Assembly (NCBI RefSeq): GCF_900220975.1
Contig: NZ_OBQD01000007.1
Location: forward strand, 248,001 to 312,000
Length of the DNA stretch: 64,000 bases
DNA from: Rhizobium subbaraonis
GTDB lineage: Bacteria > Pseudomonadota > Alphaproteobacteria > Rhizobiales > Rhizobiaceae
Direction of reading: 5' to 3'
How positions within the stretch are numbered: position 1 is the first letter of the stretch; each line of letters begins with the position of its first letter. Of the stretch, positions 10,575-28,592 are shown in pieces. The translations under genes were made by a program, and so were the position numbers. The notes below the pieces were generated by a model, which was not told the DNA's origin, did not search any database, and worked only from the letters and a program-made list of their open reading frames with translations.

Positions 10575-10594
10575 TTTCGCCCATCGCTTCTATG

Positions 10595-10622: not shown

Positions 10623-10641
10623 AAGGATGAAAGGGAATGGA

Positions 10642-14130: not shown

Positions 14131-14146
14131 TTGAATGAACGTTCAG
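14131..14146. promoter_or_regulatory. TetR-type operator 1 (upstream of Rieske oxygenase)
   Basis: TTGAATGAACGTTCAG is a near-palindrome 18 bp before the preferred start of the Rieske gene. The same element recurs at 16973-16988 and 24063-24078. An AT-rich TTTAAT (14126-14131) directly abuts it and could be the -10 box, so binding would block transcription. The BetI-like regulator at 22465-23169 is the likely binder. Confidence 0.65.
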
Positions 14147-14164
14147 CAAAATGTGGGGAAGAAG

Positions 14165-15355
14165 ATGAATGAAGTGATCCGCGACATCTCCATTCCGAAC
14201 GACTGGGACCGCAGCGGTCTGCCGGGATGGTGCTATCACAGCGCCGCCCTGCTGGAGCTGGAGAAGCAGCATATTTTCCGGGAGCACTGGCAGATCGCCT
14301 GCCACGTCTCCGACGTCCCCGAACCCGGCAACTACATCACGCTGGACGTGATCGGCGAGCGCGCCCTGATCCTTCGCGATCAGGACGGTGAGATCAAAGC
14401 GTTCCACAATATCTGTCGTCACCGCGGCTCGCGTCTCGTCGCCGACAGGAGCGGCACCTGCCGCAACGCGCTCGTCTGTCCGTTTCACGGCTGGGTCTAC
14501 AATCTCGACGGCACGCTGCGCGGGGCCGCGCGCCCCCGCTCGTTCCCGCCCATGGACAAGCACGAATTCGCGCTGAAGACCATCGAATGCGAGGTCTGGC
14601 AGGGCTTCGTCTTCATTCGCTTCGCTCCCGGCCCGCAAGCGTCCGTGGCCGAGATCATGCGCCCGTTCGAGGCGGAACTGTCGCACTACCGTCCCGCCGA
14701 GATGGTGCCCGTCGGAGAAATCCACACGCAGGAGACCCCGGTCAACTGGAAGTCCGTGCGCGACGTGGACAATGAGGGCTACCACGTGGCGATGGCTCAT
14801 CCCGCGCTACAGGATCTCTACGGCTCGACCTACTACGACGAGCCCTTCGTCGACGGCCTCTGCCGCTCGTTCGCCACCTACAATCCCCATGCCGGGCGCC
14901 GCTGGAGCGTCGGGCGCTACGTGAAGATCGCGCCGGAAAACAAGAGCTTGCCGGACCATCTGCGCAAGGCCTGGATCTATTTCGGCATCTTCCCCAATGC
15001 CGTGATCGCGGTGACGCCGGAAAGCCTGCAGTTCTACCAGGAGTTCCCGATCTCCGTCGGCCGGACGATGCTGCGCGGCGGCGTATACCGCTACCGCGAC
15101 GAAACCCGCGAGCAGGCCGCCGCCCGCTATCTCGCCGCACGCATCGACCGCGATACCCAGGCCGAGGACGTTCAACTGACCATCTGGTCGAACGAGGCCA
15201 TGACCTCGAACGCCTTCGCCGGCTTCTACCTGTCGGATCTGGAGTACGGCGTGCGGACGCACCACGACCATCTGCGGAAAGCGCTGCCGGTGATGAACCT
15301 TGCAACCCCGCCGGACGAGAAGGACATGGCGGCGAAGAATGCTGCCATGCGCTGA
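14165..15355 (+). CDS. Rieske [2Fe-2S] oxygenase alpha subunit (glycine-betaine/stachydrine demethylase type)
   Basis: The 396-residue protein has the Rieske cluster ligands C84-x-H86 (NICRHRG) and C105-x2-H108 (CPFHGW). The catalytic non-heme iron site is VDNEGYHVAMAHPAL with H207 and H212 and a bridging acid at E204. The domain order and length fit alpha subunits that demethylate quaternary amines (GbcA, stachydrine and carnitine types) better than aromatic dioxygenases. GGGGAAG before ATG 14165 favours this start over ATG 14135, which would place the operator inside the gene. No ferredoxin-reductase gene is near, so electrons must come from elsewhere. Substrate is inferred only by context with the amine island. 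Confidence 0.85.
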   Translation: MNEVIRDISIPNDWDRSGLPGWCYHSAALLELEKQHIFREHWQIACHVSDVPEPGNYITLDVIGERALILRDQDGEIKAFHNICRHRGSRLVADRSGTCRNALVCPFHGWVYNLDGTLRGAARPRSFPPMDKHEFALKTIECEVWQGFVFIRFAPGPQASVAEIMRPFEAELSHYRPAEMVPVGEIHTQETPVNWKSVRDVDNEGYHVAMAHPALQDLYGSTYYDEPFVDGLCRSFATYNPHAGRRWSVGRYVKIAPENKSLPDHLRKAWIYFGIFPNAVIAVTPESLQFYQEFPISVGRTMLRGGVYRYRDETREQAAARYLAARIDRDTQAEDVQLTIWSNEAMTSNAFAGFYLSDLEYGVRTHHDHLRKALPVMNLATPPDEKDMAAKNAAMR

Positions 15356-15390
15356 GCCGCTTGGCTCCCGCCAACCCTTGCAACGCAGCC

Positions 15391-15422
15391 TAAAAAAGAG
15401 CCCGCTTTCGCGGGCTCAAAAA
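15391..15422. terminator. Bidirectional intrinsic terminator between convergent genes
   Basis: Perfect stem GAGCCCGC/GCGGGCTC (15398-15405 and 15410-15417), loop TTTC, with a run of A before and A after it, so it has a T run on both strands. It separates the Rieske gene (ends 15355) from the aminotransferase (ends 15471). Confidence 0.88.
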
Positions 15423-15470
15423 TGTCGGGGCCGGGAATGAGTGACCCCGACAGGCTGGCAGACGGCGGCC

Positions 15471-16898
15471 TCAGCCGCGCCACAGTCCTTCCCGAACCAG
15501 GTCGTCCATCGTCAGCTCGATGCCGCGGCGAAGGATCGCCGCCATGTCGTCGATCTGGCTGGTGCTGATCGTCAGCGGCGGCGACATCACGCACATGTTG
15601 ATGAGCGGCCGCACCAGCAGGCCAAGCTCCTGGCAGTGGTTGTCGATGCGCTTGCCCACCTCGAGGTCGAGCGTCAGCGGATTGTTGCTCACCCGGTCGG
15701 CCACGCATTCCACGCAGGCCATCAGCCCCATGCCGCGCACCTCGCCGACCAGCGGAAGTTCCTCCAAAGCCTTCAGGCTGGATTGGAAATGGCCGGATAT
15801 CGAGCGTGCGTGCTCCAGAAGCCCGTCTTCGAGAAGATCGAGGTTCTTCAGTGCCACGGCACATCCGACCGGATGGCTCGAATAGGTGAGCCCGTGCGCG
15901 AACATCGCCTCCGAATGATTGGAGCGGCGCAGTTCCTCCAGAAGACGTCCGGCGATCATCACGCCGCCGAGCGGGAAGTAACCTGACGTCACGCCCTTGG
16001 CAAAAGTGATCATGTCCGGATCAAGGCCGAATACCTCCTGCGAGGCAAAGACGTGCCCGAGCCTTCCGAAGGCGGTCACAACCTCATCGGCGATGAAGAG
16101 GATGTCGTTTTGCCGGCACAGTTCGCGAATGCGGCGCAGATAGCCGTCCGGCGGAACGATGACGCCGCCCGATGCCATCACCGGTTCGGCGACGAAGGCA
16201 CCGATGCGCTCGGCGCCGACCGTCTCGATCACGTCCTTGAACTCGGCCACCAGATAGTCGCAGAACGCCACCGCTGCCACACCCTCCGGCCGGCGGAACG
16301 GATTGGGGCAGGTCAGCTTGACCACCTGCTCGCCGGCGCCGTCCATCCAGTCCTGATCGCGCGGCCGCCCGTTCAGCGAGGCCGAGAGATAGGTGGAGCC
16401 ATGGTAGGCGCCCTGGCGCGAAACGATCAGCTTCTTCTCGCCCCGTCCCTTCACATTGTTGGCAAACTGCATGAAGCGCAGCGCGGTCTCGACCGCCGAG
16501 GAACCGCCGGTGGTGTAGAACACGTGGTCGAGCCCGTCGGGCGCATGGCCGGCAAGCCGTCCTGACAGGAGTGCTGCGGGCGCGTTGGTCGTGTACCAGG
16601 GCGAATTGTAGGAAAGCTCCATCGCCTGCGCCGCCATGACCTCGGCCAGTTCCCTGCGCCGGTGACCGGCGTTGACGCACCACATGCCGGCGGGCCCGTC
16701 GATCAGCCGGCGTCCGGCGGCGTCGGTGACGTAGATACCCTCCCCGCCTTCGATCCGCCCGCGGGCTTCCGCACCGATCGAGCCCGACATGGGCCAGGGC
16801 TGCACCAGATGACGCTCGGCCAGCAGCGTCAGCTCGTCTGCAGCCTCCTCCGCCATTGCCCCACCCTGCATTCCGGTCGACTTCGGTATCGCAGCCAT
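15471..16898 (-). CDS. Class III (omega) pyridoxal-phosphate aminotransferase
   Basis: The 475-residue protein shows the class III fold: TTGGSSAVETALR (phosphate-binding region), FIADEVVTAFGRLG with D271 contacting the PLP ring, and the Schiff-base lysine K301 in FAKGVTSGYFPLGG. Enzymes of this type transaminate the terminal amine of polyamines, beta-alanine or similar omega-amines with pyruvate or 2-oxoglutarate. ATG 16898 has a GGAG at good spacing; upstream in-frame codons run into the operator region. It is divergent from the ABC transporter operon and shares operator 2, so it belongs to the amine regulon. The amino donor is unknown. Confidence 0.9.
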   Translation of the reverse strand: MAAIPKSTGMQGGAMAEEAADELTLLAERHLVQPWPMSGSIGAEARGRIEGGEGIYVTDAAGRRLIDGPAGMWCVNAGHRRRELAEVMAAQAMELSYNSPWYTTNAPAALLSGRLAGHAPDGLDHVFYTTGGSSAVETALRFMQFANNVKGRGEKKLIVSRQGAYHGSTYLSASLNGRPRDQDWMDGAGEQVVKLTCPNPFRRPEGVAAVAFCDYLVAEFKDVIETVGAERIGAFVAEPVMASGGVIVPPDGYLRRIRELCRQNDILFIADEVVTAFGRLGHVFASQEVFGLDPDMITFAKGVTSGYFPLGGVMIAGRLLEELRRSNHSEAMFAHGLTYSSHPVGCAVALKNLDLLEDGLLEHARSISGHFQSSLKALEELPLVGEVRGMGLMACVECVADRVSNNPLTLDLEVGKRIDNHCQELGLLVRPLINMCVMSPPLTISTSQIDDMAAILRRGIELTMDDLVREGLWRG

Positions 16899-16945
16899 CC
16901 CACGCTCCAGACACGTTGAAAAACGTAATTCATCACTCAACACAA

Positions 16946-16965
16946 TGAAAAGAATATTCTTTTCA
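16946..16965. promoter_or_regulatory. Perfect 20-bp palindrome in the divergent aminotransferase/ABC promoter region
   Basis: TGAAAAGAATATTCTTTTCA is identical to its reverse complement over all 20 bases. It sits 7 bp from TetR-type operator 2 and 47 bp from the aminotransferase start. Its sequence differs from the TetR-type element, which suggests a second, different regulator. Confidence 0.6.
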
Positions 16966-16972
16966 CCAAATA

Positions 16973-16988
16973 TTGAATGTTCGTTCAA
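16973..16988. promoter_or_regulatory. TetR-type operator 2 (between aminotransferase and ABC operon)
   Basis: TTGAATGTTCGTTCAA, extended to an 18-bp near-palindrome with flanking A and T. It shares the TTGAA...TTCA arms and internal pattern with the sites at 14131 and 24063. It serves two divergent units, the aminotransferase and the permease-permease-ATPase operon. Confidence 0.7.
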
Positions 16989-17165
16989 TCAATATTGCAG
17001 AATTAGCGCTTGATTTCAATGGCGGTTTGCGCTCATCTTTCGACAGGGAACAGCAACAGCCGAAAAGGCGGTCGAGATGAAATCTGCATCAGAGGCAGGC
17101 GGGTTCTGTCCCGTGCTACAGATCCGTATGCAGGGCCAGGATCACATCCAGGGAAAGTCGCGGCG

Positions 17166-18083
17166 ATGAGCACCGCGGCCATCGCCAGTTCACCGGAAAA
17201 GCCGGCTCCCGCCAAAGGCATCCGTTGGCTGCACGGCGAGGAGGCCCGCGGGCTGGCGATGATCTCGCCGACCCTGCTTTACGCGCTTGCCCTGCTGCTT
17301 GTGCCTGTCCTGCTGGTGATCGCCTACAGCTTCTGGACCCAGAACTACCTGGAGATCGACCGTACCTTCACGTTCGAGAACTACCGCCTCGCCCTGACGG
17401 AGCCGATCTACCGCGACCTTTTCGTGCGCTCGCTGTGGATCTCGATGCTGACGAGTGCCATCACCGTCGTGTTTTCCTATCCGATCGCCTGGTACATTTC
17501 CTTCCACGGCGGCCCGCACAAGAACCTCTGGCTCTTTCTCGTCACCATTCCCTGCTGGACCAGCTATCTGCTGCGGGTGATGTCGTGGAAGGTGATCCTC
17601 GGCTATGGCGGCGTCCTCAACACCGGCCTGATGGCTGCCGGCGTCATCGACCAGCCGATAACGTCGCTGCTCTACAATGCCAATGCCGTCGTCATCACTC
17701 TCGTCCACAGCTGGGCCGCCTTCGCGATCCTGCCGATCTACGTCTCGCTGCAGAAGATCGACCGGTCGTTGATTGAGGCTGCACGCGACCTGGGCGACGG
17801 TGCCGTGCGCTCCTTTCTGCGCGTCACCCTGCCGCTGTCCATGCCCGGCGTCATCTCCGCCTTCCTGATCGTGATGATACCGACGGTCGGCGACTACGTG
17901 ACGCCCAAGCTGGTGGGCGGCAAGGACGGTGTGATGATCGCAACCGCGATCCAGGCGCAGTTCGGCAAGAGCGCCAACTGGCCGCTCGGCGCGGCGCTAT
18001 CGGTCACGACGATGGTGCTGGTCTCGCTGGCGGCGGCAGCCGTCGTCCTTTCCCTTCGCTTTGCCGTGCGGAGGTTACGCTGA
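17166..18083 (+). CDS. ABC transporter permease, polyamine/opine type (PotB-like)
   Basis: The 305-residue inner-membrane protein has six predicted hydrophobic helices and the permease EAA loop (EAARDLGDGAVRSFLRVTLP, about 205-225) that docks the ATPase. The order PotB-PotC-PotA that follows is the spermidine/putrescine family arrangement. The ATG at 17166 fits a normal cytosolic N-terminus; an in-frame ATG at 17010 adds a segment without membrane or family character. Its stop overlaps the next start by one base (TGATG). It follows operator 2 in the regulated amine island. The transported amine is not known. Confidence 0.9.
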   Translation: MSTAAIASSPEKPAPAKGIRWLHGEEARGLAMISPTLLYALALLLVPVLLVIAYSFWTQNYLEIDRTFTFENYRLALTEPIYRDLFVRSLWISMLTSAITVVFSYPIAWYISFHGGPHKNLWLFLVTIPCWTSYLLRVMSWKVILGYGGVLNTGLMAAGVIDQPITSLLYNANAVVITLVHSWAAFAILPIYVSLQKIDRSLIEAARDLGDGAVRSFLRVTLPLSMPGVISAFLIVMIPTVGDYVTPKLVGGKDGVMIATAIQAQFGKSANWPLGAALSVTTMVLVSLAAAAVVLSLRFAVRRLR

Positions 18084-18895
18084 TGCTGCAGAGAATTCGC
18101 TTCCTGCCGTTCTTGCCGCTCTACGTGGCGATCTATTTCCTCTTCCTTTATCTGCCGATCCTGCTTCTGCCGGTCTTTTCGTTCAACGACGCGGCGACCA
18201 CCACCTTCCCCCTCGCCGGCTTCACGACGAAATGGTACGCCTCGCTGTGGGGCAATTCCGTGCTGCTGCAGGCTGCGCGCAACAGCCTCGTCGTCGGCGT
18301 CTGCGTCTCCCTGCTCAGCACCATCCTCGGCATCTGCGCCGCCCGCGCCATCACCCGCTACCGCTTCCGGGGCCAGCGCGCCGCAGGCGGGCTGATCATG
18401 GCGCCACTGTTTCTGCCGGAGATCATCGTCGCGGTATCCTTGCTGATGATCGCGCTGCAGTTCGGGCTGCAGCTGTCGCTCGTCACCGTGATCCTCGGCC
18501 AGGTGGTCTTCTGCATCCCCTATTCCATGTCGGTTCTGGTCTCCGGCTTCGAAGGATTCGACCGCAGCCTGGAGGAGGCGTCCTACGATCTCGGCGAGAC
18601 AGCCTTCGGCACCTTCCGGCGCGTCACCCTGCCGGTGGTGGCGCCGGCGATCGTCTCCAGCCTGCTCGTCACCTTCACCATCTCGCTAGACGAGTTCATT
18701 CTCGCCTTCTTCCTTTCCGGCACCGAACCGACACTGCCCGTCTACATCTGGGGACAGCTCCGCTTTGCCGCCAAGCTGCCCGGCGTGCTGGCGCTCGGAA
18801 GCCTGATGATCCTCGCCTCCGTCGTCTTGCTGACCGTTGCCGAAGTGCTGCGCCGGCGGGCCGAACGGCGCACGCAAGCCGCACTCGCCCACTGA
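18083..18895 (+). CDS. ABC transporter permease, polyamine/opine type (PotC-like)
   Basis: The 270-residue inner-membrane protein has about six hydrophobic segments and an EAA loop (EEASYDLGETAFGTFRRVTL, about 170-190). It is the second permease of the importer. The start overlaps the stop of the preceding permease (TGATG), so translation is coupled. It pairs with the neighbouring PotB-like permease, with the ATPase just downstream, and probably with the periplasmic protein of the convergent operon. Confidence 0.9.
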   Translation: MLQRIRFLPFLPLYVAIYFLFLYLPILLLPVFSFNDAATTTFPLAGFTTKWYASLWGNSVLLQAARNSLVVGVCVSLLSTILGICAARAITRYRFRGQRAAGGLIMAPLFLPEIIVAVSLLMIALQFGLQLSLVTVILGQVVFCIPYSMSVLVSGFEGFDRSLEEASYDLGETAFGTFRRVTLPVVAPAIVSSLLVTFTISLDEFILAFFLSGTEPTLPVYIWGQLRFAAKLPGVLALGSLMILASVVLLTVAEVLRRRAERRTQAALAH

Positions 18896-18906
18896 CAGGA
18901 GCCCCC

Positions 18907-20019
18907 ATGTCTGACCGCCCGATGATCTCCATCGAAAATGTCTCCCGCTACTACGGGGTGTACAAGGCGCTCGACGACGTATCGCTGCAGATCGGCGAAG
19001 GCGAGTTCTTCTCGCTGCTCGGGCCATCCGGCTGCGGCAAGACCACGCTTTTGCGTTCCATCGCCGGCTTCGACGTGCCGACCAGCGGCGAAATCCGCAT
19101 CGACGGCGTCGCCTCGACCCTGCTGCCTGCCAATCGTCGCCCGACCAACATGGTCTTCCAGAACTATGCGATCTTTCCGCATCTCGACGTCGGCGAAAAC
19201 GTCGCCTACGGGCTGAAGCGGCTGAGGCTGGATGCGGCCGAGGAACGTCGGCGCGTCGCAGATGCGCTCGACCAGGTGCGGCTGACGGGCCTCGACCGGC
19301 GCAAGGCCAACGAGCTTTCGGGCGGCCAGCGCCAGCGGGTGGCGCTCGCCCGCGCCCTCGTCATGCGCCCCAAGGTGCTGCTACTGGACGAACCGCTCTC
19401 CGCACTGGACAAGAAGCTGCGCGAGCAGATGCAGGTCGAGCTGCGCAGCCTGCAGCAGGCCGTCGGCATCACCTTCATTCTCGTCACGCATGACCAGTAC
19501 GAGGCCCTGGCACTGTCGGACCGCATCGCCGTGATGTTCGGCGGCTGTATCGCCCAGGTGGCGACGCCCAAGGAGATCTACCAGCATCCCCGCACGCGCA
19601 AAGTTGCAGATTTTCTCGGCGGCATGAATTTTCTCCGCGCCCGCCTCCTTGCCGACCGCAAGGGCGACGTATCGGTCGACGCGGCGAAATTCGGCACGGT
19701 GAACCTGGCAAAGCCGGTGGGCTTCACCACATCCGACGGCCACGTCACGGTCGGCATCCGGCCCGAACGGCTTCGCCTCCTCTGGGACGACGAGAAGGCG
19801 CCGCACGAACTGACCGGCCGCGTCGAGAACCGCGCCTACTTCGGCGAGGTGACGCATCTGACCATCGGCGTCGATGGCCTGGAGCAACCGCTTTCCATGG
19901 TCGAGACGAACGACTACGGCGCCGACGACCTGCCGGTCGGCGCGGAGATCAGGCTGGCTTACGACCCCGACGCTTTCGTGCTGCTGGCCGATGACGAAAT
20001 GGGCCTGCGGGCCCGATGA
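18907..20019 (+). CDS. ABC transporter ATP-binding protein, polyamine/opine type (PotA-like)
   Basis: The 370-residue cytosolic ATPase has Walker A GPSGCGKTT (39-47), the signature LSGGQRQR, Walker B VLLLDEPLSALD and the H-loop VTHDQYEAL. A C-terminal TOBE-like regulatory domain (about 240-370, with GIRPERLRL) is typical of the PotA/MalK group. AGGAG precedes the ATG at 18907, 11 bp after the permease stop. It powers the two permeases upstream. It ends 62 bp from the convergent amine oxidase gene; no clear terminator is seen in that gap. Confidence 0.92.
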   Translation: MSDRPMISIENVSRYYGVYKALDDVSLQIGEGEFFSLLGPSGCGKTTLLRSIAGFDVPTSGEIRIDGVASTLLPANRRPTNMVFQNYAIFPHLDVGENVAYGLKRLRLDAAEERRRVADALDQVRLTGLDRRKANELSGGQRQRVALARALVMRPKVLLLDEPLSALDKKLREQMQVELRSLQQAVGITFILVTHDQYEALALSDRIAVMFGGCIAQVATPKEIYQHPRTRKVADFLGGMNFLRARLLADRKGDVSVDAAKFGTVNLAKPVGFTTSDGHVTVGIRPERLRLLWDDEKAPHELTGRVENRAYFGEVTHLTIGVDGLEQPLSMVETNDYGADDLPVGAEIRLAYDPDAFVLLADDEMGLRAR

Positions 20020-20081
20020 TGCGCCACGGGCGCTGGCCTGGCCGACCGCGCTCGTCGTGCACCTTTGCCGTCCGTCACCGC

Positions 20082-21359
20082 TTACAGGGCATTCTCTCCC
20101 CCGGCCGCCATGATCCGTTCCGCCGCCATCCGCCCGGCCACGATGGCCCCTTCGATGTAGCCTGGATAGGAGAGCGACAGTTCCGAACAGGCAAACTGGA
20201 TGCGCCCTGCGCCCGAGCGCAGCACGTCTTCGGCATCCTTCGCCCGCAGGTCGCAGACGGTGTCACTGTAGCCGCCGCCGCTCCATGCGTCGCCGGTCCA
20301 GTCCCGCAGCAGGATGGCGGTCGCCGTGCGGGCAGGCTCCCCCAGAACGTCCGCAAGCTTTCCAAGGATCATCGCCTCAAGCGAAGCTGGCGGCATCCCC
20401 TGTGCGGCGATCGCCAGCGGACCGCCGACGAAGACCACGAGCGCGGCACCGAGCCCATCGTGGCTGACGTCGCAGGCAAAAAGCCCCGACGGATCGAGCC
20501 AGGACACCATGCCGCTCAGGCCGCGCTCGCGCCAGAACGGACGCGGATAGCGCACCAGCGCCTTGATGACCGCCCCGCTCCTCCACACCGAAAGCGCCCG
20601 TCGGAGCGCGGCCGGCAGATCCGGTTCGAAGCCGATGCGCGACGTGGCCACCGGCGGCACGGCGACAACCACGTGCCTTGCGGACAACAGCGCCTCCCCG
20701 GCCTGAACCTGCACGCGATCCACCCTCATCGAGATCTGCGTGACCGGCCTGCCCGTCAGGACCCGGCCATCCAGACCCGCTGCCATGTCGTCTGCCAGCG
20801 AATGGATGGTCTCGCCGACGAAATACTCGATTTCCGATTGCCGGTTGGTGATCCGCCGATCGTTGGAGACGAGGTACCAGAGCGGCAGTTCGCCGATCGG
20901 CCTGCACCATAGCCCCTCGACCGTCGAACGAAAGGCCCTTGCAGCATCGGCGCTGACAGGCTGCGCGGCCAGCCAGTCCGCGACGCTCATCCCGTCGATG
21001 GCAGGATCCCGCGGGTTGAGCGCCCTCATTCGCAGACGAAGGGACCGTGATTCCGCATAGGCCTTGTCCGGCGCGTCGATCGCCGGCTGGACGACGAAGG
21101 CGCCCTCGACCGGGGTCTGGACCAGCGTCTTGCCGTAGCGGCGGATCAACGCCATAACGTTCGTCATGTCGTCGCATACGAACTGGCCGCCCGTATCGAC
21201 GCGTCCGCCATCCGCAAAGGTCTGCGCCGCGACCCGCCCGCCGACGCGCGCCTGCGCTTCCAGCACGACAACGTCCAAGCCCCGCTCGAACAGCACCGCT
21301 GCAGCCGAGAGGCCGGTGAACCCGGCCCCGACGACGATTACGTCATGATGCTGCGCCAT
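20082..21359 (-). CDS. Flavin monoamine oxidase-family protein
   Basis: The 425-residue protein starts with an FAD-binding motif (VIVVGAGFTGLSAAAVLFERG, GAGFTG at 11-16, acidic partner in VVLEAQARVGGRV) and ends with the second flavin motif (YPGYIEGAIVAGRMAAERI). This is the monoamine/polyamine oxidase family, which oxidises amines with O2 to aldehyde or imine, H2O2 and amine. No signal peptide is present. Its start ATG overlaps the stop of the binding-protein gene (TGATG), so both are translated together. It is the last gene of the methyltransferase-TetR-binding protein-oxidase operon. Substrate is inferred as the amine imported by the adjacent transporter. Confidence 0.88.
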   Translation of the reverse strand: MAQHHDVIVVGAGFTGLSAAAVLFERGLDVVVLEAQARVGGRVAAQTFADGGRVDTGGQFVCDDMTNVMALIRRYGKTLVQTPVEGAFVVQPAIDAPDKAYAESRSLRLRMRALNPRDPAIDGMSVADWLAAQPVSADAARAFRSTVEGLWCRPIGELPLWYLVSNDRRITNRQSEIEYFVGETIHSLADDMAAGLDGRVLTGRPVTQISMRVDRVQVQAGEALLSARHVVVAVPPVATSRIGFEPDLPAALRRALSVWRSGAVIKALVRYPRPFWRERGLSGMVSWLDPSGLFACDVSHDGLGAALVVFVGGPLAIAAQGMPPASLEAMILGKLADVLGEPARTATAILLRDWTGDAWSGGGYSDTVCDLRAKDAEDVLRSGAGRIQFACSELSLSYPGYIEGAIVAGRMAAERIMAAGGENAL

Positions 21360-22441
21360 CAGTAGCCGGACTTGATCTTCTCGAACTCGGCGATCATCTT
21401 CTGCCGCAGTTCCGTCGGCAGCGGCGACTGGAACAGCGTGTCCTTCACGAACTTGTCGATATCGCCATAGCCCTTCTGATCCAGAAGCGCCGGATCGACC
21501 GCAGCCATTCCCTTGGCATTCGAATGCCCGTAGCCCCAGGATTCGACCATGTAGTTGGCGACGGGCGGATCGGTCAGCGCGTTCAGATAGTCGTATGCCT
21601 TGTCTTCGCTGCCCTCCCCGCCCTTGAGCCGCACGTAGCCGCAGACCCACGTCGACAGCCCCTCATCCGTGTCGCGCTTCATCTCGACGGGCACGCCGTC
21701 CGCCTGCAGCGTGACGGAGGTTTCGTTCCAGGCCCAGGCGAGGTCGACCTCGCCGCTCGCCATCGCCTGGCTCAACTCGGTGTTGTCGGTCCAGTAGAGG
21801 CGTATGTTCTGATGCACCTGGCGAAGGAAGTCCGACGCCTCCTTGAACTGTTCATCCGTCATCTGCGACCAGTCCTTCAGCCCGATCGCAAGGCTTGCCA
21901 GCGCATAGGCATCGTCGACATTGTCGCCGATCGAGACCCGGTCCTTGAATTTTGGATCGGCGAAAGCCTTGAGCGAGGCCACCTCCTCCGGCTTCACCGT
22001 ATCGGTGCGGTAGGTCAGCACGGTGTTTCCCCACTCGAACGGAATGAGCCAGGCGGTGCCGTCCTCCGACGTCATCAGGCCCTTCATCGCCTTGAACCCC
22101 GGTAGCACGTCGTTCCAGTTGCGAAGCTTCGATGTATCGAGCGGCTCCAGCAACCCCGCCTCCCGCCACTTCGCCACGCTCTGCGAACAGGGATGGGCGA
22201 CATCGGCCTTGAAGCCGGCGCGCAGTTTCTGGAAGGCCTCCTCTTCGTCGCCGAAGAAGGCGAAGTCCGGCGGCGTCTCGTGTTTTTCCATGTAGGCGGG
22301 GAAGAAGGCCGGCTCCTCGTAGCCGGACCAGTCGAAGACGGTGAGCCCGTCGCTGGCCCGTGCAGGCAAGGCGGTGGAGACCGAAAGTGCAGCGGCGAAA
22401 GCGGCAACGAGAAGTTTGCCCGTCCTGTAGCTGATGCTCAT
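21359..22441 (-). CDS. ABC transporter periplasmic binding protein, polyamine type (PotD-like)
   Basis: The 360-residue protein has a signal peptide (MSISYRTGKLLVAAFAAAL, cleavage near ARA-SDG) and the PotD/extracellular-solute-binding fold (VFDWSGYEEPAFFPAYMEK; LSQAMASGEVDLAWAWNE). It binds the amine in the periplasm for the PotB/C/A-like proteins encoded in the convergent operon, since no other permease adjoins it. Of two nearby ATGs, 22441 is preferred because AGGGGA lies 7 nt upstream; 22447 is too close to it. Only 23 bp separate it from the TetR gene. Its stop overlaps the amine oxidase start. Confidence 0.9.
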   Translation of the reverse strand: MSISYRTGKLLVAAFAAALSVSTALPARASDGLTVFDWSGYEEPAFFPAYMEKHETPPDFAFFGDEEEAFQKLRAGFKADVAHPCSQSVAKWREAGLLEPLDTSKLRNWNDVLPGFKAMKGLMTSEDGTAWLIPFEWGNTVLTYRTDTVKPEEVASLKAFADPKFKDRVSIGDNVDDAYALASLAIGLKDWSQMTDEQFKEASDFLRQVHQNIRLYWTDNTELSQAMASGEVDLAWAWNETSVTLQADGVPVEMKRDTDEGLSTWVCGYVRLKGGEGSEDKAYDYLNALTDPPVANYMVESWGYGHSNAKGMAAVDPALLDQKGYGDIDKFVKDTLFQSPLPTELRQKMIAEFEKIKSGY

Positions 22442-22464
22442 GCTCATTCCCCTTTTGACGTTGG

Positions 22465-23169
22465 CTATTTGGGTCCCGTTCGCGCGATATGCTTCGGAAA
22501 CATGGCCGCGATGGCCTCGATGGCGGCCTCGTGAGCCCTCTCTCGGGTCAGCCCGTCGCCCATCATCAGGCGCAGCCAGAGCCCTTCCAGCATGGTCGAG
22601 ACGGCGAGCGCCATGGGCTCGACCACATAGTCGTAGCCGCCCTCCTCCTTGAGCCGCGCACACAGGGAGACGACGATTTCCTGATACTTGACGTCGCGGG
22701 CGCCGCAGAGCGCCTGGTAGGTCGGCCGCGACTTCGCCTCGCCCCAGAAGGCGCACCAGGCGGCAAGCTTGCGCTTGGTGCAGATCTTCCGGTCGAAATC
22801 GGCAGCGACCAGCGCCCACATCTGGTCGGCCGGCCGCTCGCCCGCCTTCTCCAGCGCGGCATACCAGTGATTGGCATATTCGTCGGCCATGAACTGCAGC
22901 GTGGCGACGAGCAGCTTTTCCTTGCTCTCGAAGTGGAAGTTGACGATGCCGCGCGAGAGCCCCGCACCGTCGGCGACGTCGGCAAGCGTCGTGTCGGCAT
23001 ATCCGCGCCTGGCAAGCGAATCGATCGTCGCCTCGATCAGTTGCAGCCGCCTCGTTTCCTTCGATGCCTTGCGGCCCTTCTTCTCGACTTCCGTCACTTC
23101 CTTCTGCGCCGCACCTGCCCGCATCTTCACCGCCGTTCTCATTTTGGGATTTCGCAGCGCCTCGTTCAC
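22465..23169 (-). CDS. BetI-like TetR-family repressor
   Basis: The 234-residue protein has an N-terminal TetR helix-turn-helix (TTLADVADGAGLSRGIVNFHF, about residues 55-75) after a basic, flexible lead. The remainder matches the BetI-type ligand domain. The GTG at 23169 is preferred: it forms a GTGA overlap with the methyltransferase stop and has GGAGG at good spacing. The operators at 14131, 16973 and 24063 are probably its targets, the last one preceding its own operon, so it would be self-regulated. BetI of enterobacteria responds to choline; here the ligand is probably the amine or an aldehyde product. Confidence 0.85.
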   Translation of the reverse strand: MNEALRNPKMRTAVKMRAGAAQKEVTEVEKKGRKASKETRRLQLIEATIDSLARRGYADTTLADVADGAGLSRGIVNFHFESKEKLLVATLQFMADEYANHWYAALEKAGERPADQMWALVAADFDRKICTKRKLAAWCAFWGEAKSRPTYQALCGARDVKYQEIVVSLCARLKEEGGYDYVVEPMALAVSTMLEGLWLRLMMGDGLTRERAHEAAIEAIAAMFPKHIARTGPK

Positions 23170-23981
23170 GGATGGCCTCCGCCCGGCTTGCTGCCGCGCA
23201 GATGAGTGGGGCAATGCTCGCCGGTGTCAAGCACCTTCTGCATCGCGCTCCAGATGCGGATGTTCTTTGCCACGTATTCCTCGCCGACGGCGGCCACGGC
23301 CTGCGCATGCAACGGTCCCGAGAGCCGTTCGAGCTCGCCGCGGGCAACCTCGCGATACCAGGCGTTGCGGTTTTCCGCCGATACGTCGACGAAGCCCGCT
23401 GCCGTCATCGCCTGCAGGTAGCGCTGCGGCGAGGCCATGCCGAAGCTCAGCCCCTCGGCGGCGACATACTCCTTCATCTCGGTCGACGGCTCACCGTCAT
23501 GCGCGATCAGCCAGTCGGACGCCGCCAGCCGCCCGCCCGGCTTGAGCACGCGGAACAACTCGGAAAACAGCCATTCCTTGTCGGCCACATGGATCATCGC
23601 GTCCTTGGAGAAGACGACGTCGAACTCCCCGTCGTCGAAGGGCAGCGTTCCCGGCGGCGTGGCGATGAAGCGCACCTGCGCCGTCAGCCCCTCGCGCACC
23701 GCAGCCAGCCGCGCCCGGTCGATCACCGGCTGCTCGACATCGTAGCCGACCACTTCGGCGGGAGCGTAAGTCTTGGCGATATGCAGCGTGATGCCGCCGG
23801 CTCCGCAGCCGAAGTCGAGCACCGCCTTGCCGGCAAGATCGAGCCCAGAAAGCACGCGATCGACCTCTTCCGGGCCGCCAGGAGAAAGGTATCCATCCCC
23901 CCAGACCACCGCCAGAAACCGGATCGCCGCATCGTCGTATTCGGCCTCGTGTCCCGCTTCGCTCTGGTTTTCCGCCGTCAT
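23166..23981 (-). CDS. SAM-dependent methyltransferase (phosphoethanolamine N-methyltransferase-like)
   Basis: The 271-residue cytosolic protein has a class I SAM-binding motif I (KAVLDFGCGAGGITLHIA) and post-motifs DVVFSKDAMIHV and LKPGGRLAASDWL. The C-terminal part, including the long helical stretch after AASDWLIAH, resembles phosphoethanolamine methyltransferases more than generic ones. ATG 23981 has GAGGG at 6-nt spacing and is preferred to 24005. The gene is first in its operon and its stop overlaps the TetR start (GTGA). A methyl donor activity sits oddly in a demethylation cluster; it may act on a different intermediate or detoxify one. Confidence 0.8.
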   Translation of the reverse strand: MTAENQSEAGHEAEYDDAAIRFLAVVWGDGYLSPGGPEEVDRVLSGLDLAGKAVLDFGCGAGGITLHIAKTYAPAEVVGYDVEQPVIDRARLAAVREGLTAQVRFIATPPGTLPFDDGEFDVVFSKDAMIHVADKEWLFSELFRVLKPGGRLAASDWLIAHDGEPSTEMKEYVAAEGLSFGMASPQRYLQAMTAAGFVDVSAENRNAWYREVARGELERLSGPLHAQAVAAVGEEYVAKNIRIWSAMQKVLDTGEHCPTHLRGSKPGGGHP

Positions 23982-24062
23982 ATGCGCCCTCGAAACCAGC
24001 CGCATCCCGCTTGCGACTAAAACGAAATTTTACCGGATTATCAGAGGATTGCAACATACTTG

Positions 24063-24078
24063 CTGAATATTCATTCAA
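24063..24078. promoter_or_regulatory. TetR-type operator 3 (methyltransferase/flavoprotein divergent promoter)
   Basis: CTGAATATTCATTCAA, read on the minus strand as TTGAATGAATATTCAG, matches operator 1 at 14 of 16 positions. It lies between the divergent methyltransferase and flavoprotein genes, 60 bp before the latter. A possible -35 TTGCAA (24049-24054) with a -10 inside the element would make it a repressor site. Confidence 0.65.
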
Positions 24079-24137: not shown

Positions 24138-25757
24138 ATGCAGCGATATGACGTCCTCGTGGTGGGCGGCGGCCATAACGGCCTGGTCACCGCCGGCTAC
24201 CTGCAGCGGGCCGGCCTGAAAGTGGCTGTGCTGGAAAAGAACGGCTGGGTCGGAGGTGCGGCCACGAGCCGCGAACTGACGCCCGGCTTCCTCTATTCCA
24301 ACTGTTCATACGTCTGCTCGCTGTTCCGCCCGGAGATCATGCGCGACCTGGAACTGCCCCGGCACGGCCTGCAGGTAGTCGCCTATGAGGGCGGCGCGGT
24401 GCTGACCCGCGACGGTGACTATCTCGCCTCCTACCGCGACCATGACAGCCATCGCCGCGAGTTCGCCCGCTATTCGAAGCGCGATGCCGAGGCCTACGAA
24501 CGCTATGCCCGCGACGTCACCCGCCAGTGCCGGTTCATCCAGCCGCTTTTGATGCGCACAGCCCCCGACCCCTTCGGCTTCCGCCCGCGCGACATCGCCG
24601 AACTCGTCTACCTGGCGAAGAAATTCGGCGAATTCAGCCCCAGCGAAATGGCCGAGACGCTGCGCTTCTGGACCATGTCGATCTCCGACTTTCTCGACGA
24701 GTATTTCGAGACCGACGTCATCAAGGCCTACCTGGCGATCTCCGGCATCATCGGCACCGCGCTCGGCCCCATGTCGCCGGGAACGGCCTACGTGCTCCTG
24801 CACCACTACATGGGCGAGGTCGATGGCTCGGTCGGCGCCTGGGGCTATGCGCGCGGCGGCATGGGCGCAGTCACCCAGGCGCTCGCCAGTTCCTTCCTCG
24901 CAGCCGGCGGCACGATCCGCACCGATGCGGCAGTGGCCAAGATCTTTTCCCGCGGCGGCCGCACCACCGGCGTCGTGCTGGAGAGCGGCGAGGAGATCCG
25001 CGCCAATCTCGTCGTCTCCAATGCCGACGTGAAGCGCACCTTCCTGAAGCTGGTCGACGAAGCCGACCTGCCCGAACACTTCGTCCACCGGGTAAAGCAC
25101 TTCAAGATGCGCGGCTCGTCGGGCAAGGTGAACATCGCGCTCGACAGCCTGCCGGAGTTCCCTGCTCTGCCGAAAGGCTCATCCTGCATCCGTGGCGACC
25201 TGCACTTCACCGACAGCATAGAGCGCATGGAACGCGCCTACGACGACTGGAAGGCCGGGCGCTGGTCAGCCGACCCGATGCTCGATGCGATGATCCCGAC
25301 CACGCTCGACCCGACCATGACCTCGCCGGGCAAGCACTTCATGAGCTGCTTCGTGCAGTACTGCCCGCCGAAGGTTCAGGGTCGCGACTGGACGGATGCC
25401 GACCGCGCAGCCTTCGCCGAAACCGTTATCGGCCAGATCGCGGACTATTCACCCGGTTTCCGCGACCGCATCGTCCACATGGAGGTGCGCACCCCGCGCG
25501 AACTGGAAGCCGAGGTCGGGCTGACCGAGGGCAACATCTTCCAGGGCGAGCTGACCTTCGACCAGTTGCTGTTCAACCGCCCGGTGCCGGGCTACGCCCA
25601 GTACCGCAGCCCGATCGCCGGCCTCTACATCTGCGGCTCCTCCACCCATCCCGGCGGCGGCGTCATGGGCGCGCCCGGCCGCAACGCCGCCATGGAGATC
25701 CTCCGCGACCTCAAGCGCAGCCCCGAAACGATGAGCAACGCCCATGACGTCATCTGA
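24138..25757 (+). CDS. PYROXD2-like FAD oxidoreductase (phytoene-dehydrogenase-type fold), first copy
   Basis: The 539-residue protein has an FAD GGGHNG motif (residues 10-15, VVGGGHNGLVTAGYLQRAG) and a C-terminal CGSSTHPGGGVMGAPGRNAA that closes the flavin site. This pattern is that of PYROXD2/CrtI-like flavoproteins. It lies in the amine island, beginning after operator 3, and overlaps the second copy by 14 bases. The reaction is not known for bacterial members; oxidation of an amine or its aldehyde would suit the context. Start ATG 24138 has GAGGGAG at good spacing. Confidence 0.87.
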   Translation: MQRYDVLVVGGGHNGLVTAGYLQRAGLKVAVLEKNGWVGGAATSRELTPGFLYSNCSYVCSLFRPEIMRDLELPRHGLQVVAYEGGAVLTRDGDYLASYRDHDSHRREFARYSKRDAEAYERYARDVTRQCRFIQPLLMRTAPDPFGFRPRDIAELVYLAKKFGEFSPSEMAETLRFWTMSISDFLDEYFETDVIKAYLAISGIIGTALGPMSPGTAYVLLHHYMGEVDGSVGAWGYARGGMGAVTQALASSFLAAGGTIRTDAAVAKIFSRGGRTTGVVLESGEEIRANLVVSNADVKRTFLKLVDEADLPEHFVHRVKHFKMRGSSGKVNIALDSLPEFPALPKGSSCIRGDLHFTDSIERMERAYDDWKAGRWSADPMLDAMIPTTLDPTMTSPGKHFMSCFVQYCPPKVQGRDWTDADRAAFAETVIGQIADYSPGFRDRIVHMEVRTPRELEAEVGLTEGNIFQGELTFDQLLFNRPVPGYAQYRSPIAGLYICGSSTHPGGGVMGAPGRNAAMEILRDLKRSPETMSNAHDVI

Positions 25758-27345
25758 TGCGCCCGCAAAATCATCGACAACATCCGCAACCGCCTATGAC
25801 GCGATCGTCATCGGCGCCGGCCACAACGGCCTTGCCGCCGCCGCCAAGCTCGGCCGCAGCGGCCGCAGGGTCCTGGTGCTGGAGGCGGCGAACGCGCCGG
25901 GCGGCGCAGCCCGCGGCCGCGAATTCGCGCCGGGCTTCCGCTCGGCCGGCCTGCCCCATCTCATCAACCGGCTCGACCCGGAGGTCGCCCGCGACCTCGG
26001 CCTGTCGCTTTCGGCCACGCCCGGCCATGCCATGCCGACCGCAGTCCTCGACGGGATGAACGAACCCGCCGTCCTGCGCGGCGCCTATGGCGAGACGATC
26101 GACGGCGTGTCAGCGGAGGAGGCCGCAGCCTTCGGACGCTTGCGCGACAAGCTCGCCTTCCAGGCCGGCATCCTCAAACGCTTCCTGCGCCGCCCGCCGC
26201 CGCAGCTCGGTGCGATCGGCATCGGCGACGTCTCGACGCTGATGGCAGCAGGCTTCGGCCTGATCCGGAAAGGCCGCGCCGAGGGCCGCGATTTCCTGCG
26301 CATGCTTTTGATGAACGTCGCCGACGTCGCAGAGGAATACCTCGATGACGACAGGTTGAAGGGCCTGCTCTCCTTCGATGCCACGCTCGGCATCCACCTC
26401 GGCCCGCGCTCGCCGACCTCGCTGCTCGGCCTTTACTATCGCCTCACCGGCGAAGTGGACGGCAAGTCCGGCGGGCAGTTCATCCCGGACGGCGGGATGG
26501 CCGCGGTCGCGCCCGCCTTCCTGAAGGCCGCCGAGGGCGCCGGCGTCATCATCCGCTGCGGTGCGCGTGTCGGCCGCATCCTCGCCGATCGCGGCAGCAC
26601 CCGCGGCGTCGTGCTTGCGGATGGTTCCGAGCTGACCGCCCCCGTCGTCGTCTCCGCGATCCATCCGCAGGCGACATTCCTGCATCTGGTCGATCCGGCC
26701 GAGACCGGCACCGGTTTCCTGCGCGCCATCCGCCATGTCCGCACAGCCGGCAATGTGGCCAAGCTGGACCTGGCACTCTCACGCATGCCGAATTTCACCG
26801 GCCTCACCGGCCGCGACCATGCCGGCCGCATCGTCATCGCCCGTTCGATGGCACATGTGGAAGAGGCCTTCAACCCGGCCAAGTACGGCGAGTTCTCGCA
26901 GGACCCGGTGATGGAGATCGTGCTGCCGAGCCTCGCCGACGCCTCGCTGGCGCCGGACGGTGCCTGCACGCTTTCGGCACTCGTGCAATACGCCCCCTAC
27001 AGGCTGCGGCAGGGGTGGGAGACCGGCAAGCCGGCCTTCCTGAAGATCGTGCTCGACATTCTCGAGCGTCATGCGCCCGGCATCGGGCGCACGGTCGTCG
27101 CGGCGGATCTCAGCACTCCGGTCGACATCGAGGCCGAGTACAACCTCCCCGGTGGGCACTGGCACCACGGGGAGCTGCAGGCCGACCAGTTGCTGATCAA
27201 CCGTCCGACGGGGGCTGCATCGGGCTATGCCACCCCGATCGAAGGGCTCTACCTTGCCAGCGCCGGCGCCCACCCAGGCGGGGGCATCTCCGGCCTCGCC
27301 GGCTGGAACGCCGCCCGCCACATCCTTGCCGGAGGCAGCCGATGA
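25744..27345 (+). CDS. PYROXD2-like FAD oxidoreductase, second copy
   Basis: The 533-residue protein repeats the GAGHNG flavin motif (AIVIGAGHNGLAAAAKLG) near the N-terminus and closes with LASAGAHPGGGISGLAGWNAA. It resembles the preceding gene along its length but differs in many positions, so the two are diverged paralogues, not a recent duplication. It overlaps the first copy by 14 bases and its stop overlaps the GcvT-like start (ATGA), so the three genes are translated in one coupled operon. The pair may act as a heterodimer or on successive steps; this is inference. Confidence 0.87.
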   Translation: MTSSDAPAKSSTTSATAYDAIVIGAGHNGLAAAAKLGRSGRRVLVLEAANAPGGAARGREFAPGFRSAGLPHLINRLDPEVARDLGLSLSATPGHAMPTAVLDGMNEPAVLRGAYGETIDGVSAEEAAAFGRLRDKLAFQAGILKRFLRRPPPQLGAIGIGDVSTLMAAGFGLIRKGRAEGRDFLRMLLMNVADVAEEYLDDDRLKGLLSFDATLGIHLGPRSPTSLLGLYYRLTGEVDGKSGGQFIPDGGMAAVAPAFLKAAEGAGVIIRCGARVGRILADRGSTRGVVLADGSELTAPVVVSAIHPQATFLHLVDPAETGTGFLRAIRHVRTAGNVAKLDLALSRMPNFTGLTGRDHAGRIVIARSMAHVEEAFNPAKYGEFSQDPVMEIVLPSLADASLAPDGACTLSALVQYAPYRLRQGWETGKPAFLKIVLDILERHAPGIGRTVVAADLSTPVDIEAEYNLPGGHWHHGELQADQLLINRPTGAASGYATPIEGLYLASAGAHPGGGISGLAGWNAARHILAGGSR

Positions 27346-28592
27346 ACGCCCTGACAAAACCGCTGAATGCCACTGAGGCCCGCCGCGCCGCCCGCAACCA
27401 CATCCTCACGCCCCGGCTGGAGACACCGTTTCATCCACGGCTTGCAGCCCTCGACGTGGTCAACGACTGGTACAACTGGGCCGGCTACAAGGCGCCGCAT
27501 TCGATCTTCGACGAGGAGCTGGAGTATTTCGCCATCCGCTCCACCGCCGCACTGTTCGACATCTCGCCGATGGTGAAGTACCGCATCAAGGGTTACGACG
27601 CCGAGCGCTATCTCAACCGGCTGACGCTGCGCGACGTCCGCAAGCTTGCCGTGAACCGCATCCACTACACGGCCTGGTGCGACGACCACGGCCACGTCCT
27701 CGACGACGGCACGCTGTTTCGGCTCGGCGAGCAGGACTTCCGCCTCTGCTGCCAGGAGCGCCACCTGCCCTGGCTGCTGGACAGCGCCTTTGGCTTCGAC
27801 GTGGAGATCTTCGAGGAGACCGAGGAGATCGCCGGGCTCGCCCTGCAGGGGCCGACAAGCCATGCGGTGCTGGCCGAGGCGGGCTTTGCGGGAACCGAGC
27901 GGCTGAAGCCGTTCGACATCGCGACCTTCCCCCATGACGGCGGCCCCGGCTGCAGCGCTGTGACGATCTCGCGCACCGGCTTCACCGGCGACCTTGGCTA
28001 CGAACTTTTCGTCCCGCGGGCTGCCGCCCTGTCGCTATGGGACAGGCTGTGGGCTGCTGGCGCCGAGCACGGCATCCGCGCCATCGGCTATTCCGCGCTG
28101 AACCGCACCCGCATCGAGGCCGGCTTCATCGTCGCCAATGCCGACTTCGTCACCGCCGAGGGAGCACTGCGCGCCGACCGGGTCCGACTTCCGGATGAAA
28201 TCGGCCTCGACTGGCTCGTCGATCCGGACAAGCCGAGCTTCAACGGCCGCCGCGCGATCCTGGACGCACGTCGGAATCAAAGCTTGAAGCACATCCTCGT
28301 AGGCCTTGAAATCGAAGGAAATATCGCCGCCGAACACGCGATCGTCTACCATCGCGGCAAGCGAGAGGTCGGCCTGGTCACGGCCGCCACCTGGTCGCCC
28401 ACCGCCAAGCGCAACATCGCGATCGCCAGCCTCGAACGCCCCTACGGAACGAAATTCGTCGACGACCTCTGGGTAGAGATCTACGCGATGCGGGAGCTGA
28501 AATACCAGAAGATGATGAAGCGCGCGAAGGTGGTCCCCCGGCCGTTCGTCAAGCTGGCAAGGCGGACGGCGACACCGCCGGGCCTGCGGTGA
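27342..28592 (+). CDS. GcvT-like aminomethyltransferase/demethylase
   Basis: The 416-residue cytosolic protein matches the folate-binding GcvT/aminomethyltransferase family (ALFDISPMVKYRIKGYDAERYLNRL at the N-terminal barrel; ISRTGFTGDLGYELFVP in the middle; TAATWSPTAKRNIAIASL towards the C-terminus). Its ATG overlaps the stop of the preceding flavoprotein (ATGA). In the glycine cleavage and dimethylglycine systems such proteins transfer a one-carbon unit to tetrahydrofolate. Here it follows two flavoproteins and a Rieske oxygenase in a demethylation context, and may capture the methyl-derived carbon. No GcvP or GcvH gene is near. Confidence 0.88.
   Translation: MNALTKPLNATEARRAARNHILTPRLETPFHPRLAALDVVNDWYNWAGYKAPHSIFDEELEYFAIRSTAALFDISPMVKYRIKGYDAERYLNRLTLRDVRKLAVNRIHYTAWCDDHGHVLDDGTLFRLGEQDFRLCCQERHLPWLLDSAFGFDVEIFEETEEIAGLALQGPTSHAVLAEAGFAGTERLKPFDIATFPHDGGPGCSAVTISRTGFTGDLGYELFVPRAAALSLWDRLWAAGAEHGIRAIGYSALNRTRIEAGFIVANADFVTAEGALRADRVRLPDEIGLDWLVDPDKPSFNGRRAILDARRNQSLKHILVGLEIEGNIAAEHAIVYHRGKREVGLVTAATWSPTAKRNIAIASLERPYGTKFVDDLWVEIYAMRELKYQKMMKRAKVVPRPFVKLARRTATPPGLR

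What the first reader, a model, noticed from the sequence alone, without database searches (positions are those of the whole stretch)
14131..24078. One TetR-type operator repeated at three promoters defines an amine regulon
Seen: near-palindromes TTGAATGAACGTTCAG (14131-14146), TTGAATGTTCGTTCAA (16973-16988) and, on the minus strand, TTGAATGAATATTCAG (24063-24078); sites 1 and 3 match at 14 of 16 positions. They precede the Rieske gene, the divergent aminotransferase/ABC operon, and the divergent methyltransferase/flavoprotein operons. Known: BetI-type TetR repressors bind such symmetric arms. Inferred: the BetI-like gene at 22465-23169 controls all of them and itself.
Basis: partly seen in the sequence, partly recalled or inferred. 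Interest (0 to 1): 0.75.

Follow-up and report, generated by a model that had tools for sequence, protein, structure and literature searches.

The report
BetI-like repressor's three-operator amine regulon
One short palindromic DNA switch sits at three promoters of a soil bacterium's gene cluster, probably for eating methylated amines, and its conservation across many relatives makes it very likely that a regulator encoded in the cluster controls all of it, though binding and the true substrate are untested.

Summary
In this window alone they are modest evidence (4 of 100 shuffles give as many), but comparison is decisive. In the 80 best loci (of 353 found) with a TetR ortholog, the element TGAAY-N4-RTTCA occurs upstream of every Rieske (48 of 48), aminotransferase (66 of 66) and first-flavoprotein gene (75 of 75) testable; the other 1.53 million positions hold one more strong site, itself at a cluster promoter. 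The 6.58-Mb genome has five matches to the core; these three score best, a fourth (21.2 bits) comes close. The core alone is not specific: 126 of 151 family genomes have at least one match. The palindrome differs in some loci whose TetR helix differs, and where the methyltransferase gene is missing the site mostly lies directly before the TetR gene, so autoregulation is likely. The regulator is BetI-like but not BetI (114.8 bits against a cut-off of 201.3). The cluster looks like uptake and oxidative N-demethylation of a methylated, probably quaternary, amine; that is inferred. The regulon claim is supported; binding, effector and sign of control are untested. New member of a known kind.

The parts
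14131..14146 (+). Operator 1, upstream of the Rieske gene; overlaps the end of a likely extended -10 (TGC-TTTAAT, 14123-14131, read by eye) and the expected start of transcription
   Evidence: present at 48 of 48 testable Rieske promoters, centre 22-28 bp before the start codon
16973..16988 (+). Operator 2, between the divergent aminotransferase gene and ABC operon; two bases past the -10 of a promoter-like match for the aminotransferase (minus strand TTGAAA-17-AATATT, 17019-16991)
   Evidence: 66 of 66 testable aminotransferase promoters
24063..24078 (-). Operator 3, between the divergent methyltransferase/TetR operon and flavoprotein operon; 8 bases upstream of a promoter-like -35 for the methyltransferase (minus strand TTGCAA-16-TAAAAT, 24054-24027)
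   Evidence: 75 of 75 testable flavoprotein-1 promoters
22465..23169 (-). BetI-like TetR-family regulator, 234 aa, GTG start overlapping the methyltransferase stop; recognition helix LSRGIVNFHF
14165..15355 (+). Rieske oxygenase, 396 aa, best solved match carnitine monooxygenase; target gene 1
15471..16898 (-). Class-III aminotransferase (NF005447, over its cut-off); target gene 2
17166..18083 (+). PotB-like ABC permease
18083..18895 (+). PotC-like ABC permease
18907..20019 (+). PotA-like ABC ATPase
20082..21359 (-). Flavin amine oxidase-like protein, last gene of the methyltransferase/TetR operon; variable (32 of 80 loci at 50% identity or more)
21359..22441 (-). PotD-like solute-binding protein
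23166..23981 (-). SAM-dependent methyltransferase; first gene of the operon that holds the TetR gene
24138..25757 (+). CrtI/CrtO-like FAD oxidoreductase 1; target gene 3
25744..27345 (+). FAD oxidoreductase 2, amine oxidase/CrtI type by Pfam and by similarity to FAD oxidoreductase 1
27342..28592 (+). GcvT-like aminomethyltransferase, best solved match the GcvT part of trimethylamine N-oxide demethylase
28602..28898 (+). Small ORF (98 aa from GTG) after the GcvT gene; annotated small proteins stand at the same place in L098 and L099 (not aligned here)

Best explanation
The TetR-family protein encoded at 22465-23169 binds as a dimer to a 16-bp palindrome, YTGAAY-N4-RTTCAR, at the three promoter regions of its own gene cluster. 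Without inducer it blocks RNA polymerase: operators 1 and 2 lie on the expected transcription starts of the Rieske and aminotransferase genes, and operator 3 lies between the divergent methyltransferase/TetR and flavoprotein promoters. An incoming methylated amine, or an early product of it, is bound in the ligand domain and releases the repressor, so that uptake (Pot-type ABC transporter), a Rieske oxygenase, the aminotransferase, two FAD oxidoreductases and a GcvT-like methylene carrier are made together. Because the TetR gene is second in the operon behind operator 3, it limits its own synthesis. Shown here: the sites, their conservation and positions, their scarcity elsewhere in these loci, their tie to the TetR gene. 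Inferred: binding, repression rather than activation, the inducer, and the pathway's substrate.
For: Sites exact. 189 of 189 testable promoters in 80 ortholog loci carry the site; in 1.53 million other positions of these loci only one further site over 12 bits, also at a cluster promoter. 77 of 80 loci have the core; the three without (L035, L042, L046) have the TetR gene but no amine cluster in the locus. A matrix trained on L051-L085 ranks the three sites 1-3 in the window and among the 11 genome places scored. All 31 genomes (of 151) with a flavoprotein-1 copy of 63% identity or more have a TetR match of 52% or more within about 4 kb. Only 15 of the 77 site-bearing loci hold the second TetR gene at 60% identity or more. 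Autoregulation: site 93-317 bp before the TetR gene in 14 of 19 loci lacking a methyltransferase call. Helix and site: 114 of 120 TetR rows have SRG at the helix start (12 of these genomes occur twice); L097 (LSQGVAVFYF) has TTTGAGCGCTCAAA-like palindromes at three promoters instead (the third by eye); L135 (LSHGLVNFHF) has TTGACTGATCAGTCAA; in L131 and L132 the flavoprotein operon has its own second TetR and another palindrome, and lacks the site. Chemistry: Rieske nearest carnitine monooxygenase; GcvT nearest TMAO demethylase; heme N-demethylase-like genes near the cluster in 5 loci; structural relatives of the TetR solved with choline and with a ligand printed as N,N-dimethylmethanam(ine).
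Against: No binding or expression data. In this window alone 4 of 100 shuffles give as many matches. One unrelated place (C72:12353, 21.2 bits) scores almost as well as operator 3. The core letters alone are not specific: 126 of 151 family genomes have at least one match and some up to 15, though only 36 have the TetR at E <= 1e-40. In the first set the TetR gene was the search query, so its presence there is by construction. The helix-site link is not a simple code: homologs with SRG in L150-L152, L156 and L160 show no core site, whereas LSVG homologs L158, L164, L166 and L168 have one at a Rieske gene. L096 and L136, with LSHG helices and the cluster (L096) or parts of it (L136), show no strong site. 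Choline-type ligands in solved relatives do not show the ligand here.
Confidence: 0.85

Rival explanations
1. The sites are real, but the cognate protein is another TetR of this genome: one of the two proteins over the BetI cut-off (both on C38) or the AcrR-like TetR at 28968-29582.
For: The genome has 29 matches to the BetI model at E <= 0.001, two over the cut-off. BetI-type boxes share the outer TTGA...TCAA arms.
Against: The AcrR-like gene is in only 15 of 77 site-bearing loci (loci reach at most 10 kb each side). The betI at C38:330258 is 27% identical with helix GVSPALAHHYF and has TTGACTCATCAATCAA at its start; no place scores above 0 in L092, L093 or L095. The BetI1 box of Ruegeria is ATTGACG*CGTCAAT (PMC12442346, passages read). 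The second C38 protein was not compared.
Confidence: 0.06
2. The TetR protein binds the sites but acts as an activator, or as repressor at some and activator at others.
For: Operator 3 lies 8 bases upstream of a -35-like hexamer of the methyltransferase promoter, a place from which activators can work.
Against: Operators 1 and 2 overlap or abut the -10 and expected transcription start; most TetR proteins repress (general knowledge).
Confidence: 0.1
3. The regulon serves polyamine (primary amine) use rather than methylated amines: Pot-type transporter, class-III aminotransferase and amine oxidase form a putrescine-like route.
For: The two permeases, the ATPase and the binding protein match Pot models best, and the amine-oxidase Pfam match is strong.
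Against: None of the transport genes reaches a Pot cut-off; the amine oxidase is optional (32 of 80 loci); a CntA-like Rieske oxygenase, GcvT and neighbouring N-demethylase genes point to N-methyl groups.
Confidence: 0.2
4. The three palindromes are chance matches.
For: 4 of 100 shuffles of the window reach three matches at up to 3 mismatches; core matches occur in 126 of 151 family genomes.
Against: 189 of 189 promoters conserved with one other strong site in 1.53 million positions.
Confidence: 0.005

Closest known systems
BetI, choline-responsive TetR repressor (Ruegeria pomeroyi BetI1/BetI2 in PMC12442346, passages read; E. coli, Sinorhizobium and others as cited there)
   Same: TetR_N plus TetR_C_6 domains, TTGA/TCAA arms, operators at the promoters of catabolic and own operons, probable onium-type ligand
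   Different: Below BetI cut-offs; 27% identical to one of this genome's own BetI proteins; inner operator bases differ (TTGAAY-N4-RTTCAA against ATTGACG*CGTCAAT); no bet genes among the cluster's assignments
TetR regulator of Saccharomonospora viridis (PDB 4kwa, 4nel, 4jnn, 4ich)
   Different: 17-18% identity; its operator and targets are not known to me; ligand contacts were not compared
Carnitine monooxygenase CntA / glycine betaine monooxygenase GbcA
   Same: The Rieske gene's best solved match; a glutamate aligns with the glutamate that I recall as the bridging residue of CntA
   Different: GbcA model 138.7 bits against a cut-off of 670; no reductase gene among the 13 proteins assigned; substrate unknown
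TMAO demethylase / dimethylglycine oxidase-type enzymes with a GcvT part
   Same: GcvT-like folate-binding protein beside FAD oxidoreductases
   Different: Separate polypeptides; FAD oxidoreductase 1 is CrtI/CrtO-like

Membership tests
TetR family of transcription regulators | N-terminal TetR HTH and all-helical ligand domain | tested here: met
TetR family of transcription regulators | Palindromic operator near its own and neighbouring promoters | tested here: met
   (sites only; binding not tested)
BetI (choline-binding repressor) | Score over the BetI equivalog cut-offs | tested here: not met
   TIGR03384 114.8 of 201.3 bits; NF001978 106.5 of 118 bits
BetI (choline-binding repressor) | betI box ATTGACG*CGTCAAT | tested here: not met
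   Invariant core here is TGAAY-N4-RTTCA; box taken from PMC12442346, where BetI2 boxes also depart from it
BetI (choline-binding repressor) | Encoded beside bet genes (choline dehydrogenase, betaine aldehyde dehydrogenase) | tested here: not met
   None among the 13 window proteins assigned
BetI (choline-binding repressor) | Choline as effector | not testable with these tools
   -
GbcA / CntA Rieske oxygenases | Score over the GbcA equivalog cut-off | tested here: not met
   NF058607 138.7 of 670 bits
GbcA / CntA Rieske oxygenases | Glutamate in place of the usual bridging aspartate (recalled feature) | tested here: met
   Glu of NEGYH aligns with Glu of MECYH in 6y9c

The most novel reading that the evidence does not exclude
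A widespread, apparently undescribed alphaproteobacterial regulon in which a non-BetI, BetI-like TetR with the helix LSRGIVNFHF senses a quaternary or tertiary methylamine and switches on a pathway in which a CntA-like Rieske oxygenase and a pair of CrtI-type FAD oxidoreductases plus a free-standing GcvT protein demethylate the compound, a route of amine demethylation built from parts that I do not know to be used for it.
Probability: 0.35. Interest if true: 0.6.

Novelty: new member of a known kind. Interest (0 to 1): 0.4.

Why it matters
It turns a cluster of loosely annotated 'oxidoreductase' genes found in species of Rhizobium, Shinella, Ensifer, Mesorhizobium and relatives (record titles) into a defined regulon with a testable operator and regulator. 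The operator is a ready handle for finding the inducer, hence the substrate, of an uncharacterised and probably methylated-amine pathway in plant-associated and soil bacteria. The loci with altered recognition helices and altered palindromes are natural test cases for how BetI-like regulators choose their DNA.

Tried and rejected
Considered that the sites belong to the AcrR-like TetR at 28968-29582: rejected, since only 15 of 77 site-bearing loci have it. Considered bona fide BetI: rejected as the main binder. Considered further regulon members elsewhere: C72:12353 (before a rhodanese/metallo-hydrolase-like ORF, by eye) is not found in 4 relatives searched with its 241 bases; C46:66667 (before a MarR-like ORF, by eye) recurs with identical letters in one same-genus genome but scores only 14.2 bits. 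The six other places with 2 mismatches were viewed with their ORFs and not followed further.

Tried a simple recognition-helix code (SRG/SQG/SHG against half-site letters): dropped. Of 20 loci fetched (of 22 distant homologs outside this genome listed), 7 have a core site at the TetR or a Rieske gene, 1 has one elsewhere and 12 have none; both groups include SRG proteins, and LSVG proteins are in the first.

Tried to name the substrate: homarine was considered because of a pathway I recall under the name homABCDER. Only the citation of the paper and a remark on it were seen, in PMC13390433 (passages read); the paper itself is not held, and searches brought no text on its genes, so no comparison was made. 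A search for operator letters in papers found one C. elegans paper (listing only); searches on BetI/Rieske/aminotransferase and on BetI operators (listings) showed no title or abstract opening that describes this cluster. That is not proof that none is in print. PMC4744692 and PMC12442346 were read in passages only.

The 30 FAD1-picked loci (L103-L132) are not independent of the first set: 12 share a contig length with loci. Rows dropped before counts: of 54 Rieske genes at 50% identity or more 48 had enough upstream DNA to be tested; L110 and L117 were set aside as edge cases for Rieske. The 80 loci are the best of 353.
Full report
Observation. The three 16-mers are exact at 14131-14146, 16973-16988 and 24063-24078. 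They are the only hits to TTGAAYGWWCRTTCAA with up to 3 mismatches in the window, but 4 of 100 shuffles also give three, so on the window alone the case is modest. In the whole genome (6.58 Mb) the pattern with up to 2 mismatches has 9 places and the core YTGAAYNNNNRTTCAR has 5 (backwards control 1 each); 3 of each are these sites.

Genes. Pfam and NCBIfam give: Rieske oxygenase; class-III aminotransferase (NF005447, 679 bits over a cut-off of 618); PotB-, PotC-, PotA- and PotD-like transport proteins (below cut-offs); a flavin amine oxidase-like protein; a TetR with a BetI-type C-terminal domain; a SAM methyltransferase; two FAD oxidoreductases, the first CrtI/CrtO-like; a GcvT-like protein; and an AcrR-like TetR beyond the cluster. 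The Rieske start is read as 14165, behind GGGGAAG, not the ATG at 14135 inside the operator.

Footprinting. One scan of genome contigs with the TetR protein found 353 relatives and kept the best 80 loci, 67-96% identical; most hold the same cluster, sometimes rearranged (flavoprotein 1 in 75, aminotransferase in 66, Rieske in 54, at 50% identity or more). Upstream regions of fixed size were scanned with a matrix seeded by the window's sites: 48 of 48 Rieske, 66 of 66 aminotransferase and 75 of 75 flavoprotein-1 promoters hold TGAAY-N4-RTTCA, with TGAA and TTCA invariant in all 378 half-sites; the lowest score was 15.3 bits. The remaining 1.53 million positions hold 5 places over 8 bits and one over 12 (L050:155), itself upstream of the permease gene. 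The spacing is tight: 22-28 bp from the operator centre to the Rieske start in all 48; 66-74 bp to the flavoprotein start in 55 of 75. 46 of 80 loci have three core sites, 21 two, 10 one and 3 none. The three without, L035, L042 and L046, have the TetR gene but not the amine cluster in the locus.

Held-out test. A matrix trained only on loci L051-L085 (78 sites) scores the window's three sites 25.4, 22.8 and 22.0 bits and the next place in the window 5.8. Of the 8 other genome places, one scores 21.2 (C72:12353) and the rest 15.8 or less. The C72 place is not found in four relatives, and the relatives G057 and G145 have exactly three core sites, all in the cluster, while G054 has these three and three others. 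The core letters by themselves are not specific: 126 of 151 family genomes have one or more, up to 15.

Second sample. With flavoprotein 1 as query, 34 of 151 family genomes match at E <= 1e-100; 31 (own included) have a copy of 63% identity or more, and all 31 have a TetR match of 52% or more within about 4 kb (counted by reading the tables). Of the 30 other loci (L103-L132; 12 share a contig length with the first set), sites are present at 13 of 15 testable Rieske, 23 of 24 aminotransferase, 26 of 30 flavoprotein-1 and 22 of 27 methyltransferase promoters within set distances. Misses: L111 and L118 carry decayed versions between methyltransferase and flavoprotein; in L115, L119 and L126 a site exists but not within the methyltransferase distance; in L131 and L132 the flavoprotein operon stands next to a second TetR gene (helix VSQGALVFHF) and has a different palindrome, ACTGAGCGTTCAGT, in both. 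L133 and L134 lack the flavoproteins and GcvT but keep Rieske, aminotransferase, methyltransferase and TetR, with TTGAAC-type palindromes at the first two. Two loci with only a 40% flavoprotein relative and no TetR (L139, L140) have no site.

Which regulator. The AcrR-like TetR is in 15 of 77 site-bearing loci. Of 120 TetR rows compared, 114 have SRG at the start of the recognition helix (some genomes occur twice, and the three site-less loci are among the 114). L097 (Parasedimentitalea, TetR 33% identical, LSQGVAVFYF) has no such site but has TTTGAGCGCTCAAA before TetR/flavoprotein 1, ATTTGAGCGCTCAATT before an FMN-oxidoreductase/binding-protein pair and, by eye, GTTTAAGCGCTCAATC before a Rieske/permease operon. 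L135 (LSHGLVNFHF) has TTGACTGATCAGTCAA before its TetR gene. L096 (46% identical, LSHGLVLFHF) has the cluster but no site I could recognise. The link is not a strict code: SRG proteins in L150-L152, L156 and L160 show no core site, while LSVG proteins at 41-44% identity have TTGAAY- or CTGAAY-type sites at a Rieske gene. The genome's own betI (C38:330258) is 27% identical, has helix GVSPALAHHYF, and has TTGACTCATCAATCAA at 2107-2122 of L092, overlapping the first codons of its longest open frame.

How it works. Operator 1 abuts an extended -10 (TGC-TTTAAT, by eye), whose TG and TA letters are conserved in outline over 48 loci; operator 2 begins two bases past the -10 of one of only two promoter-like matches on the stretch scanned; operator 3 lies 8 bases upstream of the -35 of the other (the scan found 2 where 1.7 are expected, so these hexamers gain weight only from their place and, for operator 2, conservation). 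Repression by blocking polymerase is the simplest reading. The TetR gene overlaps the methyltransferase stop and is second in the operon behind operator 3; in 14 of 19 loci without a methyltransferase call the site is 93-317 bp directly before the TetR gene; the 5 misses are the three loci without the cluster, L041, and L080, where the locus ends. Autoregulation follows.

Standing. The regulator is a TetR-family member and works like BetI, but fails BetI's cut-offs, box and gene context. No description of this regulon was seen in the listings of searches. It is a well-supported, ordinary kind of local regulon on an uncharacterised pathway: new member of a known kind, interest 0.4.

Noticed in passing
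L131:8119-8132 and L132:8331-8344: Two loci with a second TetR gene beside the flavoprotein operon share the palindrome ACTGAGCGTTCAGT there, and lack the main operator at that promoter: the regulon seems split between two regulators.
   Followed up: partly
L097:13914, 22404 and about 28966: In Parasedimentitalea marina the homologous cluster repeats a different palindrome (TTTGAGCGCTCAAA type) at three promoters, with a diverged TetR helix.
   Followed up: partly
L035, L042, L046 near 10001-10700: Shinella TetR orthologs of 69-74% identity stand next to the AcrR-like TetR and RND genes without the amine cluster and without any core site in the locus: possible leftovers of a lost cluster.
   Followed up: partly
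L101:1501-1516 (G000:C72:12353): An operator-like site scoring 21.2 bits lies about 45 bp before the GTG of a 446-aa ORF that looks like a rhodanese/metallo-hydrolase fusion (by eye); not found in four relatives.
   Followed up: partly
L100:1501-1516 (G000:C46:66667): TTGAACAATGGTTCAG (minus strand) lies shortly before a MarR-like ORF (by eye) and recurs with identical letters in one same-genus genome (G054).
   Followed up: no
L021, L027, L031, L034, L036, low coordinates: Heme-dependent N-demethylase-like genes (with DmmA-like, GcvT and FMO-like neighbours in those checked) lie on the GcvT side of the cluster, a hint at methylamines as products.
   Followed up: partly
window 12930-13877: The ORF upstream of the Rieske gene looks like an ORF family found in 20 of 80 loci near the Rieske end (likeness seen by eye); not obviously part of the regulon.
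   Followed up: no
L161:7140-7155; L158, L164, L166, L168: TetR homologs of only 41-44% identity elsewhere in the class still have TTGAAY-N4-RTTCAA-like sites before their own or a Rieske gene.
   Followed up: partly
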